DNA from: an uncultured Opitutia bacterium
GTDB lineage: Bacteria > Verrucomicrobiota > Verrucomicrobiia > Opitutales > CAJWYM01
Reading direction: 5' to 3'
Length of the DNA stretch: 37,283 bases
Assembly (NCBI GenBank): GCA_913049555.1
Contig: CAJWYM010000036.1
Span: 1-37,283, forward strand
The notes beneath the pieces are model-generated. The model made no database searches, was not told the DNA's origin, and saw only the letters and a list, made by a program, of their open reading frames with translations. The translations under genes were made by a program, and so were the position numbers. Shown here in pieces: positions 27,124 to 37,283 of this stretch (the stretch's first letter is position 1; every line of letters starts with the position of its first letter).

Positions 27124-28587
27124 TTGAATAAGCCTAATATAGAAACTAAGTTAAGAGCCCTTCCTAATAAGCCAGGTGTTTATAGAATGCGAGATCGACT
27201 TGGAACCGTTCTTTATATTGGAAAAGCAAAGAATTTAAAAAAAAGAGTCCGATCCTATTTTCAAAGCTCCAAAAAATTTACTTTTGACCGTCCCAAAATA
27301 GAATTGATGATGAGTCTGGTTGAGGATATTGATATTACCGTCGTTCATAATGAAACTGAGGCTTTGCTTTTAGAAAGCAAGTTGATCAAAGAATTCAAAC
27401 CTCATTACAATACTGCTCTCCGAGATGATAAAAGGTTCCTAATGATCCGATTGAACCTCAGGAGAGATTTACCAGAATTTTCACTAGCAAGGATAAAAAC
27501 AGACAACAAGTCCCAATATTTCGGTCCTTTCGTCAATTCAATTTCTGTTAAAAAAACACTCGCAGAAATGAGAACACAATTTGGAGTATTGATTGGAGAT
27601 AGCCAACCAAAAAGAATAAAAGACGACACCTACCTTCTTTATGACGATGCTCGTGCAGAGATCTACAATGAGTCATTACCAATCACTAGAGAGATCTACT
27701 TATCAAGGATTCACGAAGCTTGTAGATTTCTTGAAGGACAGTCCAAAGATTGGTTGGAAGAATTGGAACTCAAAATGCTCAAATATTCCGAAGATCTTGA
27801 ATTTGAAAAAGCGGCTCAAAGCAGAGATTTAATTACAGCTATCAAAGAGAGTTTAGTAAAAAATCGATCCTTCATGCGGGAACCCATTCAAGCTAAAAAT
27901 AAGTCTGAAATGGACATGATATCCTTGAAGAAAGCACTGCAAATGGATGTTTTGCCAAGGCATATTGAATGTTTTGACATCTCTCACATATCTGGAACTT
28001 TTGTGGTCGCATCGATGGTTCAATTTAAAGAAGGGATCCCCAGTAAACAAAATTACCGAAGATTCAAAATGAAAGGATATCAGGGCAATGATGATTTTCG
28101 AGCTATGGAGGAAGTTGTAGAACGTCGTTATCAAAGACTGCATAATGAAAACAAAGCCATGCCAGATCTGATAGTAATTGATGGTGGGGCTGGTCAAGTA
28201 AGTGCCTCAATGCAAGCATTCTATGGAATTGGGATAGATCCCAATATGTTAATTGGTTTAGCAAAAAAAGAAGAAACAATTGTTTTTTCTGATGGAAGAG
28301 CTCCGCTTAATTTGTCTATGAGAGACAAAGGATTGCGATTGCTTCAGCGATTAAGAGATGAAGCGCATCGCTTTGCGAATAGTTACAGTGCAGAATTAAG
28401 AAGTAAAAAAATTAAGGAATCTTTACTGGATGAAATTCCAGGAATTGGACCCAACAAGCGTAAAGCTCTTTTGATGCACTTTAAGTCTATTCAAAACATT
28501 CAAAAAGCGGACTCATCAAAAATAACTCAAGTTCCAGGTATTTCAGAAAAATTAGCAGAAATTGTATTGAATCATCTTAGTAAGTAA
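27124..28587 (+). CDS. uvrC: Shortened excinuclease UvrC
   Basis: 487 aa from a TTG start, against roughly 600 aa for typical UvrC. It makes the dual incisions in nucleotide-excision repair. The GIY-YIG nuclease is at the N-terminus (PGVYRMRDRLGTVLYIGKAKNLKKRVRSYF, 17-46). The UvrBC motif is at 214-245 (KMLKYSEDLEFEKAAQSRDLI). The RNase H-like nuclease follows with IECFDISH (Asp285) and VIDGGAGQ (Asp353), then a helix-hairpin-helix pair from about 435. Two parts are missing. The four Cys that hold an iron-sulfur cluster in E. coli UvrC between GIY-YIG and UvrBC are absent; only Cys200 lies in that span. About 100 residues between UvrBC and the second nuclease are also gone. Catalytic residues remain, so it is probably active. 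Confidence 0.9.
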   Translation: MNKPNIETKLRALPNKPGVYRMRDRLGTVLYIGKAKNLKKRVRSYFQSSKKFTFDRPKIELMMSLVEDIDITVVHNETEALLLESKLIKEFKPHYNTALRDDKRFLMIRLNLRRDLPEFSLARIKTDNKSQYFGPFVNSISVKKTLAEMRTQFGVLIGDSQPKRIKDDTYLLYDDARAEIYNESLPITREIYLSRIHEACRFLEGQSKDWLEELELKMLKYSEDLEFEKAAQSRDLITAIKESLVKNRSFMREPIQAKNKSEMDMISLKKALQMDVLPRHIECFDISHISGTFVVASMVQFKEGIPSKQNYRRFKMKGYQGNDDFRAMEEVVERRYQRLHNENKAMPDLIVIDGGAGQVSASMQAFYGIGIDPNMLIGLAKKEETIVFSDGRAPLNLSMRDKGLRLLQRLRDEAHRFANSYSAELRSKKIKESLLDEIPGIGPNKRKALLMHFKSIQNIQKADSSKITQVPGISEKLAEIVLNHLSK

Positions 28588-29624: not shown

Positions 29625-30428
29625 ATGGGTAATTATTCTAATGTTAAATCATGGGATGTGCAGGAAAGACTCTCGTATCTTGAAAACTGTGCTCTTTGGT
29701 TGGGGCGAGTGAACAGACGGTTTATATGCGATCGCTTTCAAATCTCGTTGCAACAAGCATCTGCGGATATACAGAGCTATCATGAGCTCAATCCGAAAGC
29801 TTTGCATTATGATATTAAGGCAAAATGTTATTTTCCAAGTTCTGATTTTCACCCTATTTTAGTTTCTTTGGTAGATCCACGGTCGGCATTAAATGAGTTT
29901 TTCCCTACTAAAGTAGATAGCGTTTTAATTCCGCCTCGCAAATTAGAGCTAAATGTTCTTCGTTCATTAAGCGTGTGTTTGTATCAGATGAATTCTATTG
30001 AGATTGATTACTTCTCAATTCATTCGAATACCCGCAAAAAAAGAAGAATTGCACCTTGTGCTTTTGCTTCGGATGGATTGCGTTGGCACGTGAGAGCTTG
30101 GTGTTTTAATAATTCAGCGTATCGAGACTTTTTGCCGAGTCGAATTGTTGAAACCGGAAGCATGGAAGTTTTTGATTTTCCTATACCGGACAATGATTGG
30201 GACTCAAAGGAAGAAATAGAGTTTATCCCCGCCCAGAGCTTAGATAGGAATTCACAAAAAGCAGTAAAACTAGATTATAGCATGGAACAAGGCTCGCTTT
30301 ATTTACAGACACGAGTAGCAATGAAAGGCTATACATTGAGAAGATTAAATTTTATCGAATTGGCAACTGTTGGCCATGTAAATACCAGTGGAACACTTGA
30401 AATCAAAAGCATTCAAGCAGTTCAATGA
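29625..30428 (+). CDS. BrxR/CapW-like WYL-domain transcriptional regulator
   Basis: A 267-aa DNA-binding, ligand-sensing regulator. Residues 10-75 form a winged helix with the phrase RLSYLENCALWLGRVNRRFI followed by ISLQQASADIQSYHEL, nearly the signature of the BrxR/CapW family from BREX and CBASS defence loci. Residues 105-180 are a WYL domain, with KKRRIAPCAFASDGLRWHV leading into RAWC and FLPSRI. About 190-267 is the WCX-like dimer/effector tail (VAMKGYTLRRLNFIEL). The start ATG has no Shine-Dalgarno. The stop lies 39 nt before cas12a on the same strand, so they are probably one transcript. Family knowledge says such proteins repress until a ligand, perhaps a nucleic-acid fragment made during infection, releases them. 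Its role over Cas12a here is inference. Confidence 0.85.
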   Translation: MGNYSNVKSWDVQERLSYLENCALWLGRVNRRFICDRFQISLQQASADIQSYHELNPKALHYDIKAKCYFPSSDFHPILVSLVDPRSALNEFFPTKVDSVLIPPRKLELNVLRSLSVCLYQMNSIEIDYFSIHSNTRKKRRIAPCAFASDGLRWHVRAWCFNNSAYRDFLPSRIVETGSMEVFDFPIPDNDWDSKEEIEFIPAQSLDRNSQKAVKLDYSMEQGSLYLQTRVAMKGYTLRRLNFIELATVGHVNTSGTLEIKSIQAVQ

Positions 30429-30467: not shown

Positions 30468-33400
30468 ATGAATAAATTCTTAGATTCTTTTACTCATCAA
30501 TACTCCTTGAGCAAGACGCTTCGTTTTGAACTCAAGCCTGTTGGCAAGACTGCTGAATGGATACAGAAACGCGATATCATTGGTACAAAGAAGCAAGAGA
30601 ATGGTGAGGCTCAACTTACAGGAAAGGATGCGGTGAGAGCTGAGAATTACGAGTATGCTAAGAAATTATTAAATGAGATGCACCGACTTTTTATTGAGGA
30701 TTCCTTAGCTGCTATAAAAGAGGAACAAAAGGTTGAACTGAATAAGCTTTTAGTAAAAATTGCCGAATCTGGATCATTGGATGGTTTTCGCAAACCTATG
30801 TCTAATATTTGCAAAGAATTGTTTGATTCGGCGACTCAAGATTGGTTGCTTGCTTACAGTGAAGAAATGCCGTGTTTCTGGGATGAAGATATTTTAGAAT
30901 TAACAAATAAGGCAGAAACTACTGAAAATAAAAAAAATATAAAGTTTTTCCTTAAAAAAGCAGAAGATATAAGAAAATTTAAGGACGATCCACTCAAAGC
31001 TTTTAAGAAAAAGAAGCATGAGGCACTTAATTCCAATACGGAAGCTCTCAAGCTCTTAGAGTGGAAAATTCGTAGAGGGGAAGTTCTAATTAGTGGAAAG
31101 GATTTAGGTAGAGATGAATCTGAGGAAATTCTATCTACAAAAGAGTTGATTCTGATTCTGCGTAGTTTTTATAGCTTTGTAACTTACTTTACAGGGTTTA
31201 ATGAGAACCGAGCAAACATTTACAATTTGGATGATAAGAAATATATTTCTACTTCAATTGCATTTAGAAGTTTCGAGCAAAATCTATTTTTCCACATAGA
31301 AAATATTAAGAAGTGGCATACTATTACCAACTCTATTGAAGAGCATACTGACCAGCTGAATGCCTCGGATTATCCTATCAAAGATAAGCTCAGAGAATTA
31401 GAACTTGCTTTTGATTGTAAACTTGCGGACTTATTTGCGGTGGATTCATTTAGCCAATTTCTATCTCAGTCGGGGATAGATCGCTATAATTCCATAATGG
31501 GAGGGATTGCTCAAAAAACAGGTAAAACAAAAGTGCAAGGACTGAACGAGATTATCAATCAGGCTCGTCAGCAAACTGGGGCGAAGAGACATAAATTCCC
31601 TCCAATGAAGTTACTTTATAAGCAGATTCTGAGCAAAGGGGAGGGTATTTTTGTTGAAAGCTATGTGGATGATGCAGATATGCTGACATCAATTGCAGGT
31701 TTTCATGAGAATCATCTGAATGAAAGTCTCTGTTCAAATTGGTTGCACGAATTAGAAGAGCTAATCGACTCCGTTCAGGAGAGCAAGGATACTATATTTA
31801 TCGCAAGAGATAAGTTGAATCGTATTTCTCAGGAGATAACAGGGTCTTGGTCAGCGATTCAGGACTGGATTGTCGCTCACCAAAAAGATCAAAAGGAAGT
31901 CGATGCCCTGACTAAAAAGAAAGTCTTTTCGATTCAAGAGCTAGAAGATTACTTCTCTAAGAGTTCAGATGATGAACTATTTACTGCAAAGATCCCCGAA
32001 GATAGAAGTGCATATCTGCCAGGTGAGGGTGAGGGTATTTTGTTCCAGTTCTTTAAGGTTCGGGCCAAAGAAATTCTGGCAGAATTGCAATCTGGATGGT
32101 ATGCCTTAGACAAGGCTCAGTTATTGCAAGAAAAGCAGTTGGACAAGAATAGAGAAAATGAAGGGAGTAAGGGCTTTGAACAAGTGGGTCTACTCAAAGG
32201 ATATTTGGATGCCTGTAATTCTCTCAGTCGATTTATTGCAGATTGGAATATTCAAAAAGACATTAAGCAAGAGAGGTGTTCGCTCTGGTATGAATTTCTC
32301 CAAAAGCATTTGGACACCGTACCCATTTTTGACTTATACAATCAAGTTCGCAACCATGTGAGCAAAAAAGCGTATTCCACTGATAAATTGAAGGTTAATT
32401 TTGAGAAAAGTACTTTGCTTGATGGTTGGGATCGTAATAAAGAATCGCAGAACTTTGGAGTGCTTTTCGAGAAAGATGGAGCATATTACCTTGGAATCAT
32501 GACGCCAGATTCAAATGGAATTTTTGAGTATGATGTGAATCCAGATGAAAATACGAAAAAGAAAGCGATTAAAGAGGAGCTTCGAAAACAAACGACTCCT
32601 GAAAATGGAGAAGATCGATTCCAGAAAATTAACTATAAGCTTCTTCCTGGTCCGAATAAGATGTTACCGAAGGTATTTTTTGCTAAGTCAAATGAGGATC
32701 TATTTCAACCCTCAGCAAGGATTACTGAGATAAAAGAAAACAAGAAGTATGCAAAGGCCTACACAGACAAGCATGGGAAAGCGGAGTTACATGAATATAT
32801 TGATTTCTGTCAAAAATCACTAGTAAGACACCCTGAATGGAGTGTTGCTTATGGTTTTGATCAAACCACTTTTCGTAAGGCGACAGAGTATATTAGCATC
32901 GACGAATTTTATAGAGAAGTGGAGTTGTTGGGATATAAAGTGACTTTTGATTCTATCAAGGCAACTTACATAGAAGAGAAAGTAGCTAATGGAGAGTTAT
33001 ACCTCTTTCAAATCTACAATAAGGACTTTTCAACAGCGAAGAAAGGGGGAGGGAAAGATAACCTGCATACCCTTTATTGGAAGAGTTTGTTTAGTGAGGA
33101 TAACTTAAAGGATGTGGTATTTAAGTTGAATGGGCAAGCGGAGGTCTTTTTCCGACCATCTTCTATTGTTTGGAGTGAGAAAGTTATGAAACAGGGGCAT
33201 CATTATGATGATGACAAGATGCTGAAAGATAAATTCAAATATCCAATTATAAAAGATTTTAGATTTACCCAAGATAAGTTCTTTTTTCATTGTCCTATCT
33301 CGCTCAATTTTAAAGCCCCTGCTAAGCCTTATGGATTTAATTACAAAGTGCACGATTTCCTTCGTAAGAATGGGGAGATAAATGTGATTGGGATAGATCG

Positions 33401-34685
33401 TGGGGAGAAGCACTTGCTCTATTACTCTATTACGAATCAGCAGGGAGATATTATTGAACAGGGGAGTTTGAATTCGATTGAATCGAGCTACGAAAAGGGT
33501 TCATCTAGTGTTCCGCATTCCACTAATTATTTAGAGAAGCTACAGGAGAAAGAAAAGAACCGAGATTCGGCTCGTAAGTCTTGGAGTCGAATTGAGAACA
33601 TCAAGGAGCTAAAGGCTGGCTACCTATCGCATGTCGTACATAAGCTAGCTAAATTGATTATTAAACATAATGCAGTTGTTGTCTTGGAGGACTTAAATGC
33701 TGGCTTTAAACGGGGTCGTTTTAAAGTAGAGCGTCAGGTGTATCAGAAGTTTGAGAAAGCGTTGATTGATAAGCTGAATTACCTAGTATTTAAGGACCAG
33801 GAAAAACCTAGTGCGCCCGGGCATCCTCTACGAGCTTATCAGCTCACTGACCCTTTTGAGAGTTTCGAGAAGCTGGGTAAACAATCTGGAATTCTGTTTT
33901 ATACAACAGCAGCCTATACCTCGACGACAGATCCAGTGACTGGATTTCTCAAAAATGTTTATAAACCATATGCGAATGTGGTGGATAGTTCGGATTTTTG
34001 GAAATCATTTGATGAAATTCACTACGATGTTAAGAAGGAACGTTTTGAGTTCACTTACGATCTACGCAAGATTAAGAACAAGCAAGTCGATAGAGATAAG
34101 GATGAAGCCAAAGTGAGTCGATCTGTCTGGACGGTTTGTTCATGCGTGGAGCGTTCTCGCTATGTGAAACGCAAAGCGAACGAGGAGCAAAAACAGGGTG
34201 CTGCCAGTAAGAGTATCGGTAAAATGGGTGAATATGAAGTATTCGTTGTCACGGATAAGCTCAAGGCTTTGTTCGAAAAGGAGAGTATTTCCTACCAGTC
34301 TGGAGAGGATATTCGTAGTCAGTTAAGTAACCGTATAGATAAAAAGGACGCTAAGTTGCACCGCGAGCTGATTTACTACTTCGGCACTCTTCTTAATATG
34401 CGAGTAACAGATAAGCAAAGCGAGAGTGGGACAGATGAGAACGACTATATTTTATCTCCAATAGAGCCTTTTTTTGATAGTCGTAAAGGCTATGAAAAAC
34501 TGCCTGTCAATGGGGATGCGAATGGTGCTTATAATATCGCTCGTAAAGGAATCGCTATTCTGAATCGGATTCATGAATCTGACTCAGGGGATAAGGTTGA
34601 CTTAATGATTCGCAAGAAGGATTGGCAAGACTTTGTGCAAAATGAGGAAGTGGTGCAGAAGCAGATGGGGAAGCTGGATTTATAG
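30468..34685 (+). CDS. cas12a: Cas12a (Cpf1), type V-A CRISPR effector nuclease
   Basis: A 1405-aa single-protein effector that trims its own pre-crRNA and cuts target DNA. The N-terminus FTHQYSLSKTLRFELKPVGK is the family start. REC lobes follow (FYSFVTYFTGFNENRANIY; LSQSGIDRYNSIMGG; KLLYKQILS). The PAM-contacting loop is KLLPGPNKMLPK (724-735). WED has NLHTLYW with His867 and KLNGQAEVFFRP, matching the crRNA-processing region. RuvC-I is GIDRGE (Asp977), followed by the bridge helix (RDSARKSWSRI). RuvC-II is LEDLNAGFKRGR (Glu1074), the Nuc arginine is Arg1312 in NMRVTDKQ, and RuvC-III is NGDANGAYN (Asp1350). All catalytic residues are present, so it looks active. It is about 100 residues longer than the Francisella (1300 aa) and Acidaminococcus (1307 aa) enzymes. 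Start ATG follows an A-rich, SD-less leader. It sits between the WYL regulator and cas4. Confidence 0.97.
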   Translation: MNKFLDSFTHQYSLSKTLRFELKPVGKTAEWIQKRDIIGTKKQENGEAQLTGKDAVRAENYEYAKKLLNEMHRLFIEDSLAAIKEEQKVELNKLLVKIAESGSLDGFRKPMSNICKELFDSATQDWLLAYSEEMPCFWDEDILELTNKAETTENKKNIKFFLKKAEDIRKFKDDPLKAFKKKKHEALNSNTEALKLLEWKIRRGEVLISGKDLGRDESEEILSTKELILILRSFYSFVTYFTGFNENRANIYNLDDKKYISTSIAFRSFEQNLFFHIENIKKWHTITNSIEEHTDQLNASDYPIKDKLRELELAFDCKLADLFAVDSFSQFLSQSGIDRYNSIMGGIAQKTGKTKVQGLNEIINQARQQTGAKRHKFPPMKLLYKQILSKGEGIFVESYVDDADMLTSIAGFHENHLNESLCSNWLHELEELIDSVQESKDTIFIARDKLNRISQEITGSWSAIQDWIVAHQKDQKEVDALTKKKVFSIQELEDYFSKSSDDELFTAKIPEDRSAYLPGEGEGILFQFFKVRAKEILAELQSGWYALDKAQLLQEKQLDKNRENEGSKGFEQVGLLKGYLDACNSLSRFIADWNIQKDIKQERCSLWYEFLQKHLDTVPIFDLYNQVRNHVSKKAYSTDKLKVNFEKSTLLDGWDRNKESQNFGVLFEKDGAYYLGIMTPDSNGIFEYDVNPDENTKKKAIKEELRKQTTPENGEDRFQKINYKLLPGPNKMLPKVFFAKSNEDLFQPSARITEIKENKKYAKAYTDKHGKAELHEYIDFCQKSLVRHPEWSVAYGFDQTTFRKATEYISIDEFYREVELLGYKVTFDSIKATYIEEKVANGELYLFQIYNKDFSTAKKGGGKDNLHTLYWKSLFSEDNLKDVVFKLNGQAEVFFRPSSIVWSEKVMKQGHHYDDDKMLKDKFKYPIIKDFRFTQDKFFFHCPISLNFKAPAKPYGFNYKVHDFLRKNGEINVIGIDRGEKHLLYYSITNQQGDIIEQGSLNSIESSYEKGSSSVPHSTNYLEKLQEKEKNRDSARKSWSRIENIKELKAGYLSHVVHKLAKLIIKHNAVVVLEDLNAGFKRGRFKVERQVYQKFEKALIDKLNYLVFKDQEKPSAPGHPLRAYQLTDPFESFEKLGKQSGILFYTTAAYTSTTDPVTGFLKNVYKPYANVVDSSDFWKSFDEIHYDVKKERFEFTYDLRKIKNKQVDRDKDEAKVSRSVWTVCSCVERSRYVKRKANEEQKQGAASKSIGKMGEYEVFVVTDKLKALFEKESISYQSGEDIRSQLSNRIDKKDAKLHRELIYYFGTLLNMRVTDKQSESGTDENDYILSPIEPFFDSRKGYEKLPVNGDANGAYNIARKGIAILNRIHESDSGDKVDLMIRKKDWQDFVQNEEVVQKQMGKLDL

Positions 34686-34717: not shown

Positions 34718-35281
34718 ATGGAGAGTTACATTCCTATAACATTCTTGAATGACTTCTCTTTCTGTCCTCGTTCGATCTATTTTCATAATATTTATCAGGA
34801 AAATTATAATGAAAATACAGTGCACAAAACTTGGCAGAAGGAGGGGCAAGCAGCCCACAAATCTATAGATGAGCAATCTTACACTAGTCGAAAGGATGTC
34901 TTACAAGGTCTGTCTGTTTACTCTGTGCAATATGGATTAATGGGCAAAATCGATCTTTTCGACCAACGAAGTGGAGTACTGACGGAGAGAAAAAACTCGG
35001 TGACGGCAGTGTACCCCGGCTTCCGCTATCAGATCTATGCTCAGTATTACTCTCTTTGTGAAATGGGATATAAGCCAAGAGTGCTGCGACTTCACTCGAA
35101 AAAGAGTAATCAAGCCTATCCCATTTCGATCCCATCCGAAGTGGAGAGAGCAGAGTTTGAACAAGTGATTCAAGAACTTCGCGACTTTTCCTTAGAAGAT
35201 CCATTTTCTCAAAACATAGCGAAGTGCCGAAACTGTATCTATAACCCGTTGTGCGATTATTATAAGGAGGTTGACCTATGA
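34718..35281 (+). CDS. cas4: Cas4 nuclease of the adaptation module
   Basis: A 187-aa RecB-like iron-sulfur nuclease that trims prespacers and helps set PAM-side orientation with Cas1-Cas2. Cys16 (FCPRS) pairs with the C-terminal cluster KCRNCIYNPLCDYY (Cys170, Cys173, Cys179) to hold a 4Fe-4S centre. Nuclease residues are Asp79 in GKIDLFD, Glu90 and Lys92 in LTERKNS, and the QIYAQYY helix (QhxxY motif). Starts 32 nt after cas12a and ends in a 4-bp overlap with cas1. The spacer between cas12a and cas4 has a small AGCCT/AGGCT hairpin (34692-34709) that might reduce read-through. Confidence 0.95.
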   Translation: MESYIPITFLNDFSFCPRSIYFHNIYQENYNENTVHKTWQKEGQAAHKSIDEQSYTSRKDVLQGLSVYSVQYGLMGKIDLFDQRSGVLTERKNSVTAVYPGFRYQIYAQYYSLCEMGYKPRVLRLHSKKSNQAYPISIPSEVERAEFEQVIQELRDFSLEDPFSQNIAKCRNCIYNPLCDYYKEVDL

Positions 35282-36252
35282 TGACATTGCCAGATTTTCG
35301 TTACAAACAATGCTTATTCTACTTCTCTAGTAAGCAGTCTAAGATTACTTTTCGTGCCAGTAATTTGGTGATAAAGGATGATAAAGAGAATACGAAGCTC
35401 CAACACTCCTGCCACAAAAGCTTTGTGCTCTTTATTATCGGAAATGTGACCCTAAGCAATGTGTTGATGATACAGGCAAAGAAGCATGGGTTTCCCATTA
35501 TTTTACTATCATACAATTTGCGAGTGGATGGCTATATCAATAACCGGGCGGAAGGGAATTTCTTATTACGGAAGAAGCAATACTCTCTTGCAGAGAAGGA
35601 GCTAATGATCGCCAAAAAGCTGGTTCGACAAAAGGTTGACAATCAGATAGCTCTCATACATGGGCTTCGTTACCGTAGTAAGGAGGATAATGAGACTATT
35701 GCCGAGATGCGATCTATCTGCCTTGATCATGCTGAAGACTATCAAGAGCTGATGGGACTAGAGGGCATCGCTAGCAAGTTGTTTTTTTCCTGCTATTTTC
35801 GTCTTCTGGATTGGAAGGCTCGACTCCCTCGAACAAAGTATGATATCGCGAACTTACTTCTGGATATTGGCTATACTTATTTGTTTAATTTCGTGGAAGC
35901 GATGTTGGGCTGCTATGGATTTGATATCTACTGTGGAGTGTATCACAAGTTCTTCTATCAGCGAAAATCTCTGGTCTGTGATATTATTGAGCCATTCCGG
36001 TGTATCATTGATGAACGCCTGAGGAAAGCTCACAACCTCAAGCAGATTGATCCGAATGATTTTCTGCTCATTAAAGGACAATACACGATGCCATTCAAAA
36101 ATCAGAAACGCTACACCTCTCTTTTTATGCAAGATATCTTGGATAGAAAAGAGGAAATCTTCCTCTATGTGCAGAGCTATTATCGTTGGCTCATAAAGGG
36201 CAAAGAAGATGAAGATTTTCCTGTGTTTTGCATCTATACTAAACCCAAATAA
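35278..36252 (+). CDS. cas1: Cas1 integrase
   Basis: A 324-aa spacer-integration enzyme. Metal ligands are visible as Glu162 in MGLEGIASKLFF, His223 in GVYHKFFYQRKSLVCD, and Asp235/Glu238 in the following CDIIEPFR. The N-terminal beta domain and helical catalytic domain have the usual lengths, and the GVYHxxFYxRxSLVCD pattern is common in type V Cas1. The gene has the strongest Shine-Dalgarno of the operon, AAGGAGG at 35264-35270, 7 nt before an ATGATG start inside the end of cas4. This suggests efficient coupled translation of the adaptation proteins. Confidence 0.96.
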   Translation: MMTLPDFRYKQCLFYFSSKQSKITFRASNLVIKDDKENTKLQHSCHKSFVLFIIGNVTLSNVLMIQAKKHGFPIILLSYNLRVDGYINNRAEGNFLLRKKQYSLAEKELMIAKKLVRQKVDNQIALIHGLRYRSKEDNETIAEMRSICLDHAEDYQELMGLEGIASKLFFSCYFRLLDWKARLPRTKYDIANLLLDIGYTYLFNFVEAMLGCYGFDIYCGVYHKFFYQRKSLVCDIIEPFRCIIDERLRKAHNLKQIDPNDFLLIKGQYTMPFKNQKRYTSLFMQDILDRKEEIFLYVQSYYRWLIKGKEDEDFPVFCIYTKPK

Positions 36253-36264
36253 AAGGTTAAGACC

Positions 36265-36537
36265 ATGCTTCTTGTTGTCTATGATATTCATTCCGACAGA
36301 TTGAGAACTCGTCTTTCTAAGTATCTGGAAGGCTATGGTTCTCGAATTCAATACTCTGTATTCGAGATTCGGCTAAGCGAACGATTTCTGCGCAATATTC
36401 AGAGCGAAATGAAGTCAAAGTTCGAGAAACACTTTTCGCAAGACGATAGTGTTCTGGTTTTTAAGATTCCAGACAGTGCGAATATCCTTCGATTCGGATA
36501 TCCTAAAAATGAAGAAAACGACCTGATTCTAGTCTAG
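36265..36537 (+). CDS. cas2: Cas2 adaptation protein
   Basis: A 90-aa ferredoxin-like subunit that bridges Cas1 dimers. MLLVVYDIHSD gives the first strand with the conserved Asp7, then RTRLSKYLEGYGSRIQYSVFEIRLSE, the typical helix and second strand. It starts 12 nt after cas1 and is the last cas gene before the leader and array. Confidence 0.95.
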   Translation: MLLVVYDIHSDRLRTRLSKYLEGYGSRIQYSVFEIRLSERFLRNIQSEMKSKFEKHFSQDDSVLVFKIPDSANILRFGYPKNEENDLILV

Positions 36538-36743: not shown

Positions 36744-37283
36744 GTCTAACAAGCATGCAAAATTTCTACTGTTGTAGATTCAAGTGCGATCCAGTTCAAA
36801 AGATGCGTCTAACAAGCATGCAAAATTTCTACTGTTGTAGATCCGGCAAGTCCAACAAGTGCAGATGATGTCTAACAAGCATGCAAAATTTCTACTGTTG
36901 TAGATCCTATATCTATATCTATATCTATATCACGTCTAACAAGCATGCAAAATTTCTACTGTTGTAGATTGCAGTGGTTTCAATGGCTTGATTAGTGTCT
37001 AACAAGCATGCAAAATTTCTACTGTTGTAGATGGATTCGAAACGGTCAAAATGGTGCAGGTCTAACAAGCATGCAAAATTTCTACTGTTGTAGATAACAT
37101 TGCGAACCCAGTTAATACACCTGTCTAACAAGCATGCAAAATTTCTACTGTTGTAGATTAGGTCTATAGGTTAAAAAATCTCAGGGTCTAACAAGCATGC
37201 AAAATTTCTACTGTTGTAGATAGGCGGTCAAGGGGCAAGGGGCAAAAAGTCTAACAAGCATGCAAAATTTCTACTGTTGTAGA
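36744..37283 (+). CRISPR. Type V-A CRISPR array, 9 repeats visible, truncated by the window
   Basis: Identical 36-nt repeats begin at 36744, 36807, 36870, 36934, 36997, 37060, 37123, 37186 and 37249; the last is cut one base short by the window edge. They start GTCTAACAAGCATGC and end AATTTCTACTGTTGTAGAT. The end contains the TCTAC-TGTT-GTAGA stem-loop, the same 19-nt handle as Francisella Cas12a crRNA. The eight spacers are 27 nt, except the third, which is 28 nt. Spacer 3 (36906-36933) is mostly repeated ATATCT, and spacer 8 (37222-37248) contains GGGGCAAGGGGCAA. The 5' half of each repeat holds the palindrome GCATGC. Repeat orientation makes plus the transcribed strand. No degenerate terminal repeat is seen, so the array continues to the right. 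Confidence 0.98.

What the first reader, a model, noticed from the sequence alone, without database searches (positions are those of the whole stretch)
36906..36933. Spacer 3 is a microsatellite (repeated ATATCT)
The 28-nt spacer is almost entirely the hexamer ATATCT and is one base longer than the other seven. A low-complexity spacer could target many loci, come from a repetitive phage or plasmid region, or derive from the host and risk autoimmunity. It may also be a template-slippage product, which would explain the extra length.
Basis: seen in the sequence. Interest (0 to 1): 0.5.

Follow-up and report, generated by a model that had tools for sequence, protein, structure and literature searches.

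The report
Microsatellite spacer in Cas12a CRISPR array
One stored "memory" in a bacterial Cas12a immune array is almost entirely a six-letter repeat; it looks like an ordinary capture of a short repetitive stretch of unidentified foreign DNA, unusual in composition but normal in length.

Summary
Spacer 3 (36906-36933, 28 nt) of a type V-A (Cas12a) array holds a perfect 25-nt CTATAT tract; the other seven spacers are 27 nt. The composition is exceptional: among 1289 unique spacers from 105 comparison arrays the longest tandem tract is 13 nt. Spacer 8 of the same array (17-nt CAAGGGG tract) is also an outlier. The length is ordinary: 28 nt is the commonest length in the comparison set (395 of 1301), and a hexamer slip would change length by 6, not 1. 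The host assembly (about 95% complete) has no second copy of the tract, so self-targeting is not supported. A pure tract contains no TT, so a T-rich PAM can only lie at its edge. No full protospacer was found in IMG/VR, in 371 other genomes of the order, or in 386 others of a phylum sample. In IMG/VR the exact tract occurs in 31 contigs; 20 of the 24 longest covering ORFs of at least 100 aa read Asp-Ile repeats, and 13 of the 18 of these that I scanned match phage replication families: a plausible, unproven kind of source. Verdict: an ordinary spacer with unusual low-complexity content; source unknown.

The parts
36906..36933 (+). Spacer 3, 28 nt, crRNA-sense strand +
36907..36931 (+). Perfect hexamer tract (CTATAT)4.2, 25 nt; the complement reads GATATA (Asp-Ile) in one frame
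   Evidence: frame read from the sequence
37222..37248 (+). Spacer 8, 27 nt, with a 17-nt heptamer tract CAAGGGG x2.4 (37229-37245)
36744..37283 (+). CRISPR array: 8 spacers, 9 repeats of 36 nt (the last cut at 35 nt by the contig end), identical over the 35 nt that all nine share
30468..34685 (+). cas12a (1405 aa), TIGR04330 917.4 bits (cut-off 300)
34718..35281 (+). cas4, TIGR04328 (type V Cas4)
35278..36252 (+). cas1, TIGR04329 (type V Cas1)
36265..36537 (+). cas2, TIGR01573
36538..36743 (+). Interval between cas2 and the first repeat; presumed leader
   Evidence: position only; leader function inferred

Best explanation
Spacer 3 is a genuine, normally sized type V-A spacer that Cas4-Cas1-Cas2 captured from a short tandem-repeat stretch (about 25 nt, wholly inside the captured piece) of an unidentified foreign element. 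Transcribed on the + strand it would give a crRNA with an intact repeat hairpin and an unstructured guide, and Cas12a would cut a matching site that has a T-rich PAM just outside the tract. Shown: the tract, its length, the set of cas genes, the rarity of such spacers, absence of a second copy from the host assembly. Inferred: acquisition by the local Cas proteins, the PAM, foreign origin, activity.
For: cas12a, cas4, cas1 and cas2 next to the array, all above family cut-offs. Spacer length 28 nt is the commonest of 1301 comparison spacers (27 nt: 344; 28 nt: 395). No other copy of the tract in the host assembly, and no other match to the array beyond pieces of 15-23 nt at E 1.4 to 5. The bases beside the tract inside the spacer (C before, AC after) break the period, so the source tract, if unchanged since capture, lies wholly inside the spacer. 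Spacer 3 leaves the repeat hairpin intact in a minimum-energy fold. Francisella V-A acquires spacers mainly of 27-29 bp with a TTTN PAM (PMC13034035, passages); PMC9419969 gives a mode of 29 nt and TTTV as interference PAM (passages).
Against: No protospacer found: no full match among the IMG/VR loci fetched with the tract or with the first 19 nt (best 2 mismatches), none at <=3 mismatches in 371 other genomes of the order or 386 others of a phylum sample (the samples overlap). Phage and plasmid BLAST masks simple repeats and is silent on this spacer. 20-nt starts of spacers 1, 2, 5, 6 and 8 also found nothing in IMG/VR; 4 and 7 were not scanned there. So no spacer of this array has a known source, and the foreign origin is inferred by exclusion. 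About 5% of the host genome may be missing.
Confidence: 0.85

Rival explanations
1. More specific form of the best explanation: the source is an Asp-Ile repeat linker in a phage replication-initiation (replisome organizer / DnaD-like loader) gene, read on the strand opposite to the spacer.
For: Of 31 IMG/VR loci with the exact 25-nt tract, 24 have an ORF of >=100 aa over it, and in 20 the longest such ORF reads DIDIDIDI, although five of the six frames of the tract are open (read from the sequence). Of the 20, 18 were scanned and 13 hit replication PHROGs. 10 of 31 loci have TTTV at the matching edge with mismatches only at positions 1 and 27, or 1, 27 and 28.
Against: None matches all 28 nt. 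Two pairs of loci are identical over 1225 nt around the tract (L012/L034, L014/L041), so the cases are not all independent. Relatives of the two replication proteins that I compared are mainly in phages of Gram-positive hosts, with a few Vibrio or Pseudomonas records, while the window carries a TonB-dependent receptor homologue, so this host is probably diderm. What IMG/VR samples is not an even draw of viruses.
Confidence: 0.2
2. The tract grew or shrank inside the array by replication slippage after acquisition, which explains the extra base.
For: Perfect short repeats are prone to slippage in general (recalled knowledge).
Against: A slip changes length by 6, to or from 22 or 34 nt; only 2 of 1301 comparison spacers are <=22 nt and 4 are >=34 nt, while 28 nt is the mode. 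One base cannot be a hexamer slip.
Confidence: 0.05
3. The spacer was taken from the host's own genome and is potentially autoimmune.
For: The host does contain short tandem repeats, e.g. a 50-nt AGGTCTA tract and a 26-nt TCCTCT tract in a 400-kb sample.
Against: No second copy of the 18-nt tract at <=2 mismatches in the 3.10-Mb assembly.
Confidence: 0.04
4. Assembly artefact.
For: The array lies at a contig end, and the contig stops inside a repeat.
Against: The tract is only 25 nt, lies 350 nt from the end, is bounded by bases that break the period, and the repeat spacing around it is regular. Reads were not available.
Confidence: 0.04

Closest known systems
Type V-A CRISPR-Cas arrays (Cas12a, Cas4, Cas1, Cas2; e.g. 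Francisella novicida U112)
   Same: cas12a, cas4, cas1, cas2 followed by an array; 36-nt repeat ending in the Cas12a stem-loop; 27-28 nt spacers
   Different: Two of eight spacers consist largely of tandem repeats; 0 of 1289 unique comparison spacers has a tract of 17 nt or more
Low-complexity spacers removed by filters in spacer-protospacer studies (PMC13326750, passages seen)
   Same: Spacer 3 (6 non-unique 6-mers) and spacer 8 (5) would be dropped by that paper's criterion of >=4 non-unique 6-mers
   Different: That paper treats such spacers as a source of spurious matches; its filters together removed about 1.4% of spacers. In my V-A set 5 of 1289 meet this one criterion

Membership tests
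Type V-A CRISPR-Cas locus | Cas12a effector | tested here: met
   TIGR04330 917.4 bits against cut-off 300
Type V-A CRISPR-Cas locus | Type V Cas4, Cas1 and a Cas2 beside the effector | tested here: met
   TIGR04328, TIGR04329, TIGR01573 all above cut-off
Type V-A CRISPR-Cas locus | Repeat ending in the Cas12a stem-loop, AATTTCTAC..GTAGAT (motif recalled) | tested here: met
   AATTTCTACTGTTGTAGAT in the eight full repeats
Type V-A CRISPR-Cas locus | Spacer length within the range of such arrays | tested here: met
   27 or 28 nt; comparison distribution
Spacer with known target | Protospacer with T-rich PAM in a mobile element | tested here: inconclusive
   No full match found; partial tract matches only
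Self-targeting spacer | Matching site in the host genome | tested here: not met
   within a 95%-complete assembly
Slippage-derived spacer | Length off the normal range by a multiple of the unit | tested here: not met
   28 nt is the mode; +1 is not a multiple of 6
Active CRISPR-Cas system | Interference and acquisition activity | not testable with these tools
   no expression or challenge data

The most novel reading that the evidence does not exclude
A microsatellite guide could act as broad immunity across phage families: several unrelated phages encode an Asp-Ile repeat linker in a replication gene with nearly the same codons, and T-rich bases beside it supply a PAM, so one spacer could recognise replication genes of phages that share little other sequence. 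Ten of the 31 IMG/VR loci meet this on paper, with a single mismatch (position 1) in the first 24 nt; six of the ten lie in ORFs with replication PHROG hits.
Probability: 0.05. Interest if true: 0.55.

Novelty: new member of a known kind. Interest (0 to 1): 0.2.

Why it matters
Mainly as a caution: a simple-repeat spacer gives partial matches in unrelated viruses and should not be used alone to assign a virus to a host. If the novel reading were true, it would show that one spacer from a repetitive coding linker can cover unrelated phages. Two outliers in one array may also mean that this host met an element rich in short tandem repeats.

Tried and rejected
Slippage, self-origin and artefact were considered and left weak for the reasons in the rivals. 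A search for relatives of this Cas12a in genome contigs confirmed none, and of 35 genomes searched (the host and 34 of its order) only the host has a match. A PAM-plus-seed scan (TTTV + 14 nt) gave 11 stretches, with 7 to 11 mismatches over the whole spacer: chance-like. Phage BLAST hits over spacers 5 (Vibrio phage VP4B, E = 2) and 4 (Escherichia phages, E = 7) were looked at: without gaps they have 10 and 8 mismatches of 27, so I read them as chance. Paper searches for microsatellite, tandem-repeat or slipped spacers (15 of 367 listed; 15 of 42; none) showed no listed title or abstract start about such natural spacers; of those papers only PMC13326750 was opened, by passages. A search on repeats or linkers in replisome organizers (10 of 489 listed) showed none on this point. 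The tool's reversed-pattern control is useless for this tract, because the reversed tract is the same repeat. The spacer-8 comparison was made after seeing the data, so its weight is post hoc.

Full report
Observation. The window is contig C36, from its first base to 37283, of a 3.10-Mb, 102-contig genome. It ends with a type V-A locus: a WYL-domain gene (29625-30428), cas12a, cas4, cas1, cas2 and an array with eight spacers. The ninth repeat is cut at the end of the contig, so the array is probably longer than what is seen. Spacer 3 is at 36906-36933, is 28 nt, and holds a perfect 25-nt CTATAT tract. The other seven spacers are 27 nt.

Is it more than chance? They gave 105 arrays and 1301 spacers, 1289 unique. 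The longest tandem tract with period 1-9 was 13 nt; 0 of 1289 reached 17. Spacer 3 has 25 and spacer 8 has 17. In 656,753 28-nt windows of flanking DNA from those loci, 9.0e-4 hold a tract of >=17 nt and 3.8e-5 one of >=25 nt. In 399,460 windows of the host sample the rates are 5.1e-4 and 9.8e-5; in 314,714 windows of the flanks of tract-bearing IMG/VR loci, a biased set, they are 2.5e-3 and 3.9e-4. With eight spacers about 0.0003 to 0.003 tracts of >=25 nt are expected. The composition is therefore a real oddity, and two of eight more so, with the caveat that spacer 8 was noticed afterwards.

The extra base. In the comparison set 28 nt is the commonest length (395), followed by 27 (344); 747 of 1301 are 28 nt or longer. 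The lengths assume a repeat of 36 nt; a few repeats in the set start one base off. One base more is within the normal scatter. A hexamer slip would give 22 or 34 nt; only 2 spacers are <=22 and 4 are >=34. Published V-A acquisition gives mainly 27-29 bp, most often 29 (PMC13034035, passages; PMC9419969, passages). What is less usual is the uniformity of the other seven: no comparison array with eight or more spacers read has all but one of the same length.

Where could it come from? Host: no other CTATAT x3 at <=2 mismatches; BLAST of the array found eight other places, of 15-23 nt and E 1.4 to 5; spacer 8's tract is also absent elsewhere. Relatives: no match at <=3 mismatches in 371 other genomes of the order or 386 others of a phylum sample (the two samples overlap). 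Viruses: 31 IMG/VR stretches hold the exact 25-nt tract, and a scan with the first 19 nt of the spacer gave 12, two of them already among the 31; none of these 41 matches all 28 nt, the best having 2 mismatches. Phage BLAST of the array gave 16 records: matches to the repeat end, and weak ones over spacers 4 and 5 at E 2 to 7; these two are poor without gaps (10 and 8 mismatches of 27). Plasmids gave one record at E = 6. The low-complexity filter hides spacer 3 in those two searches.

What the viral tracts are. In 24 of the 31 loci the longest ORF over the tract has at least 100 aa. In 20 of these it reads Asp-Ile-Asp-Ile; the others read Leu-Tyr (2), Tyr-Ile (1) and Ile-Ser (1). I scanned 18 of the 20 against PHROGs (not L034 and L041, which equal L012 and L014 over 1225 nt around the tract): 13 hit replication families (replisome organizer, DnaD-like helicase loader, replication initiation, primosomal protein), 3 hit only families of unknown function (phrog_16304 in each), 2 hit none. 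For one of the 13 (L020) the best hit is a family of unknown function and the replication family comes second. A 98-aa Asp-Ile ORF (L021) hit none; the Ile-Ser ORF (L039) is a baseplate protein. In L036 and L029 the repeat sits in the middle of the protein. Relatives of these two are mostly in phages of Staphylococcus, Streptococcus and other Gram-positive hosts, with a few Vibrio or Pseudomonas records; a third protein (L031, phrog_16304) had no relative among phage records.

Targeting. The pure tract has no TT, so a TTTV or TTN PAM can only stand outside it. This limits the idea of many sites. Of the 31 loci, 10 have TTTV at the matching edge with mismatches only at positions 1 and 27, or 1, 27 and 28. 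Six of the ten lie in ORFs with replication hits (L020, L027, L028, L029, L036, L038). They could be recognised if position 1 tolerates a mismatch; that is not tested. The PAM of this Cas12a is not known; TTTV is taken from the literature.

Function. The minimum-energy fold of repeat end plus spacer keeps the repeat hairpin and leaves spacer 3 unpaired, as for spacer 6, so this gives no reason to doubt a working guide.

Verdict. A real spacer of ordinary size with unusual, low-complexity content, probably from a tandem-repeat stretch of an unidentified foreign element; a phage replication gene with an Asp-Ile linker is a candidate source at about 0.2. Low-complexity spacers as such are known (PMC13326750, passages).

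Noticed in passing
37222-37248: Spacer 8 also carries a tandem tract (CAAGGGG x2.4, 17 nt), longer than in any of 1289 comparison spacers; no second copy in the host assembly.
   Followed up: partly
37249-37283: The contig ends inside the ninth repeat, so the array probably continues; no other place in the assembly holds the full repeat at <=3 mismatches.
   Followed up: partly
L212:101-124 (MK496734.1, Capybara microvirus Cap1_SP_161) and Leptospira phage records KF114879.1, KF114880.1, KX656785.1: These phage records hold one stretch identical or nearly so to the end of the Cas12a repeat (19-23 nt, one place per record, no annotated feature under it where the record is annotated). Lone repeat units in phages are known as RNA anti-CRISPRs (recalled), so these could be Cas12a-repeat mimics; chance is not excluded.
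   Followed up: partly
L187:2652-2701 (G000 contig C10): The host genome has a perfect 50-nt heptamer array (AGGTCTA x7).
   Followed up: no
27124-28587: UvrC homologue of only 487 aa; TIGR00194 matches it in two stretches and the UVR motif lies close to the RNase H domain, as if a middle segment were missing.
   Followed up: no
29625-30428: A WYL-domain protein gene stands directly upstream of cas12a in the same direction; a possible regulator.
   Followed up: no
30468-34685: This Cas12a (1405 aa) is distant from those in the fetched V-A loci (best score 40% identity over 1221 aa, L093, 115 of 117 loci, many of which do not hold a whole cas12a) and had no match in 34 genomes of the same order.
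   Followed up: partly
L014, L016, L025, L027, L028, L029, L032, L033, L036, L038: Replication-initiation genes of several phage families share an Asp-Ile repeat coded by nearly pure GATATA repeats: a recurrent microsatellite in phage replication genes.
   Followed up: partly
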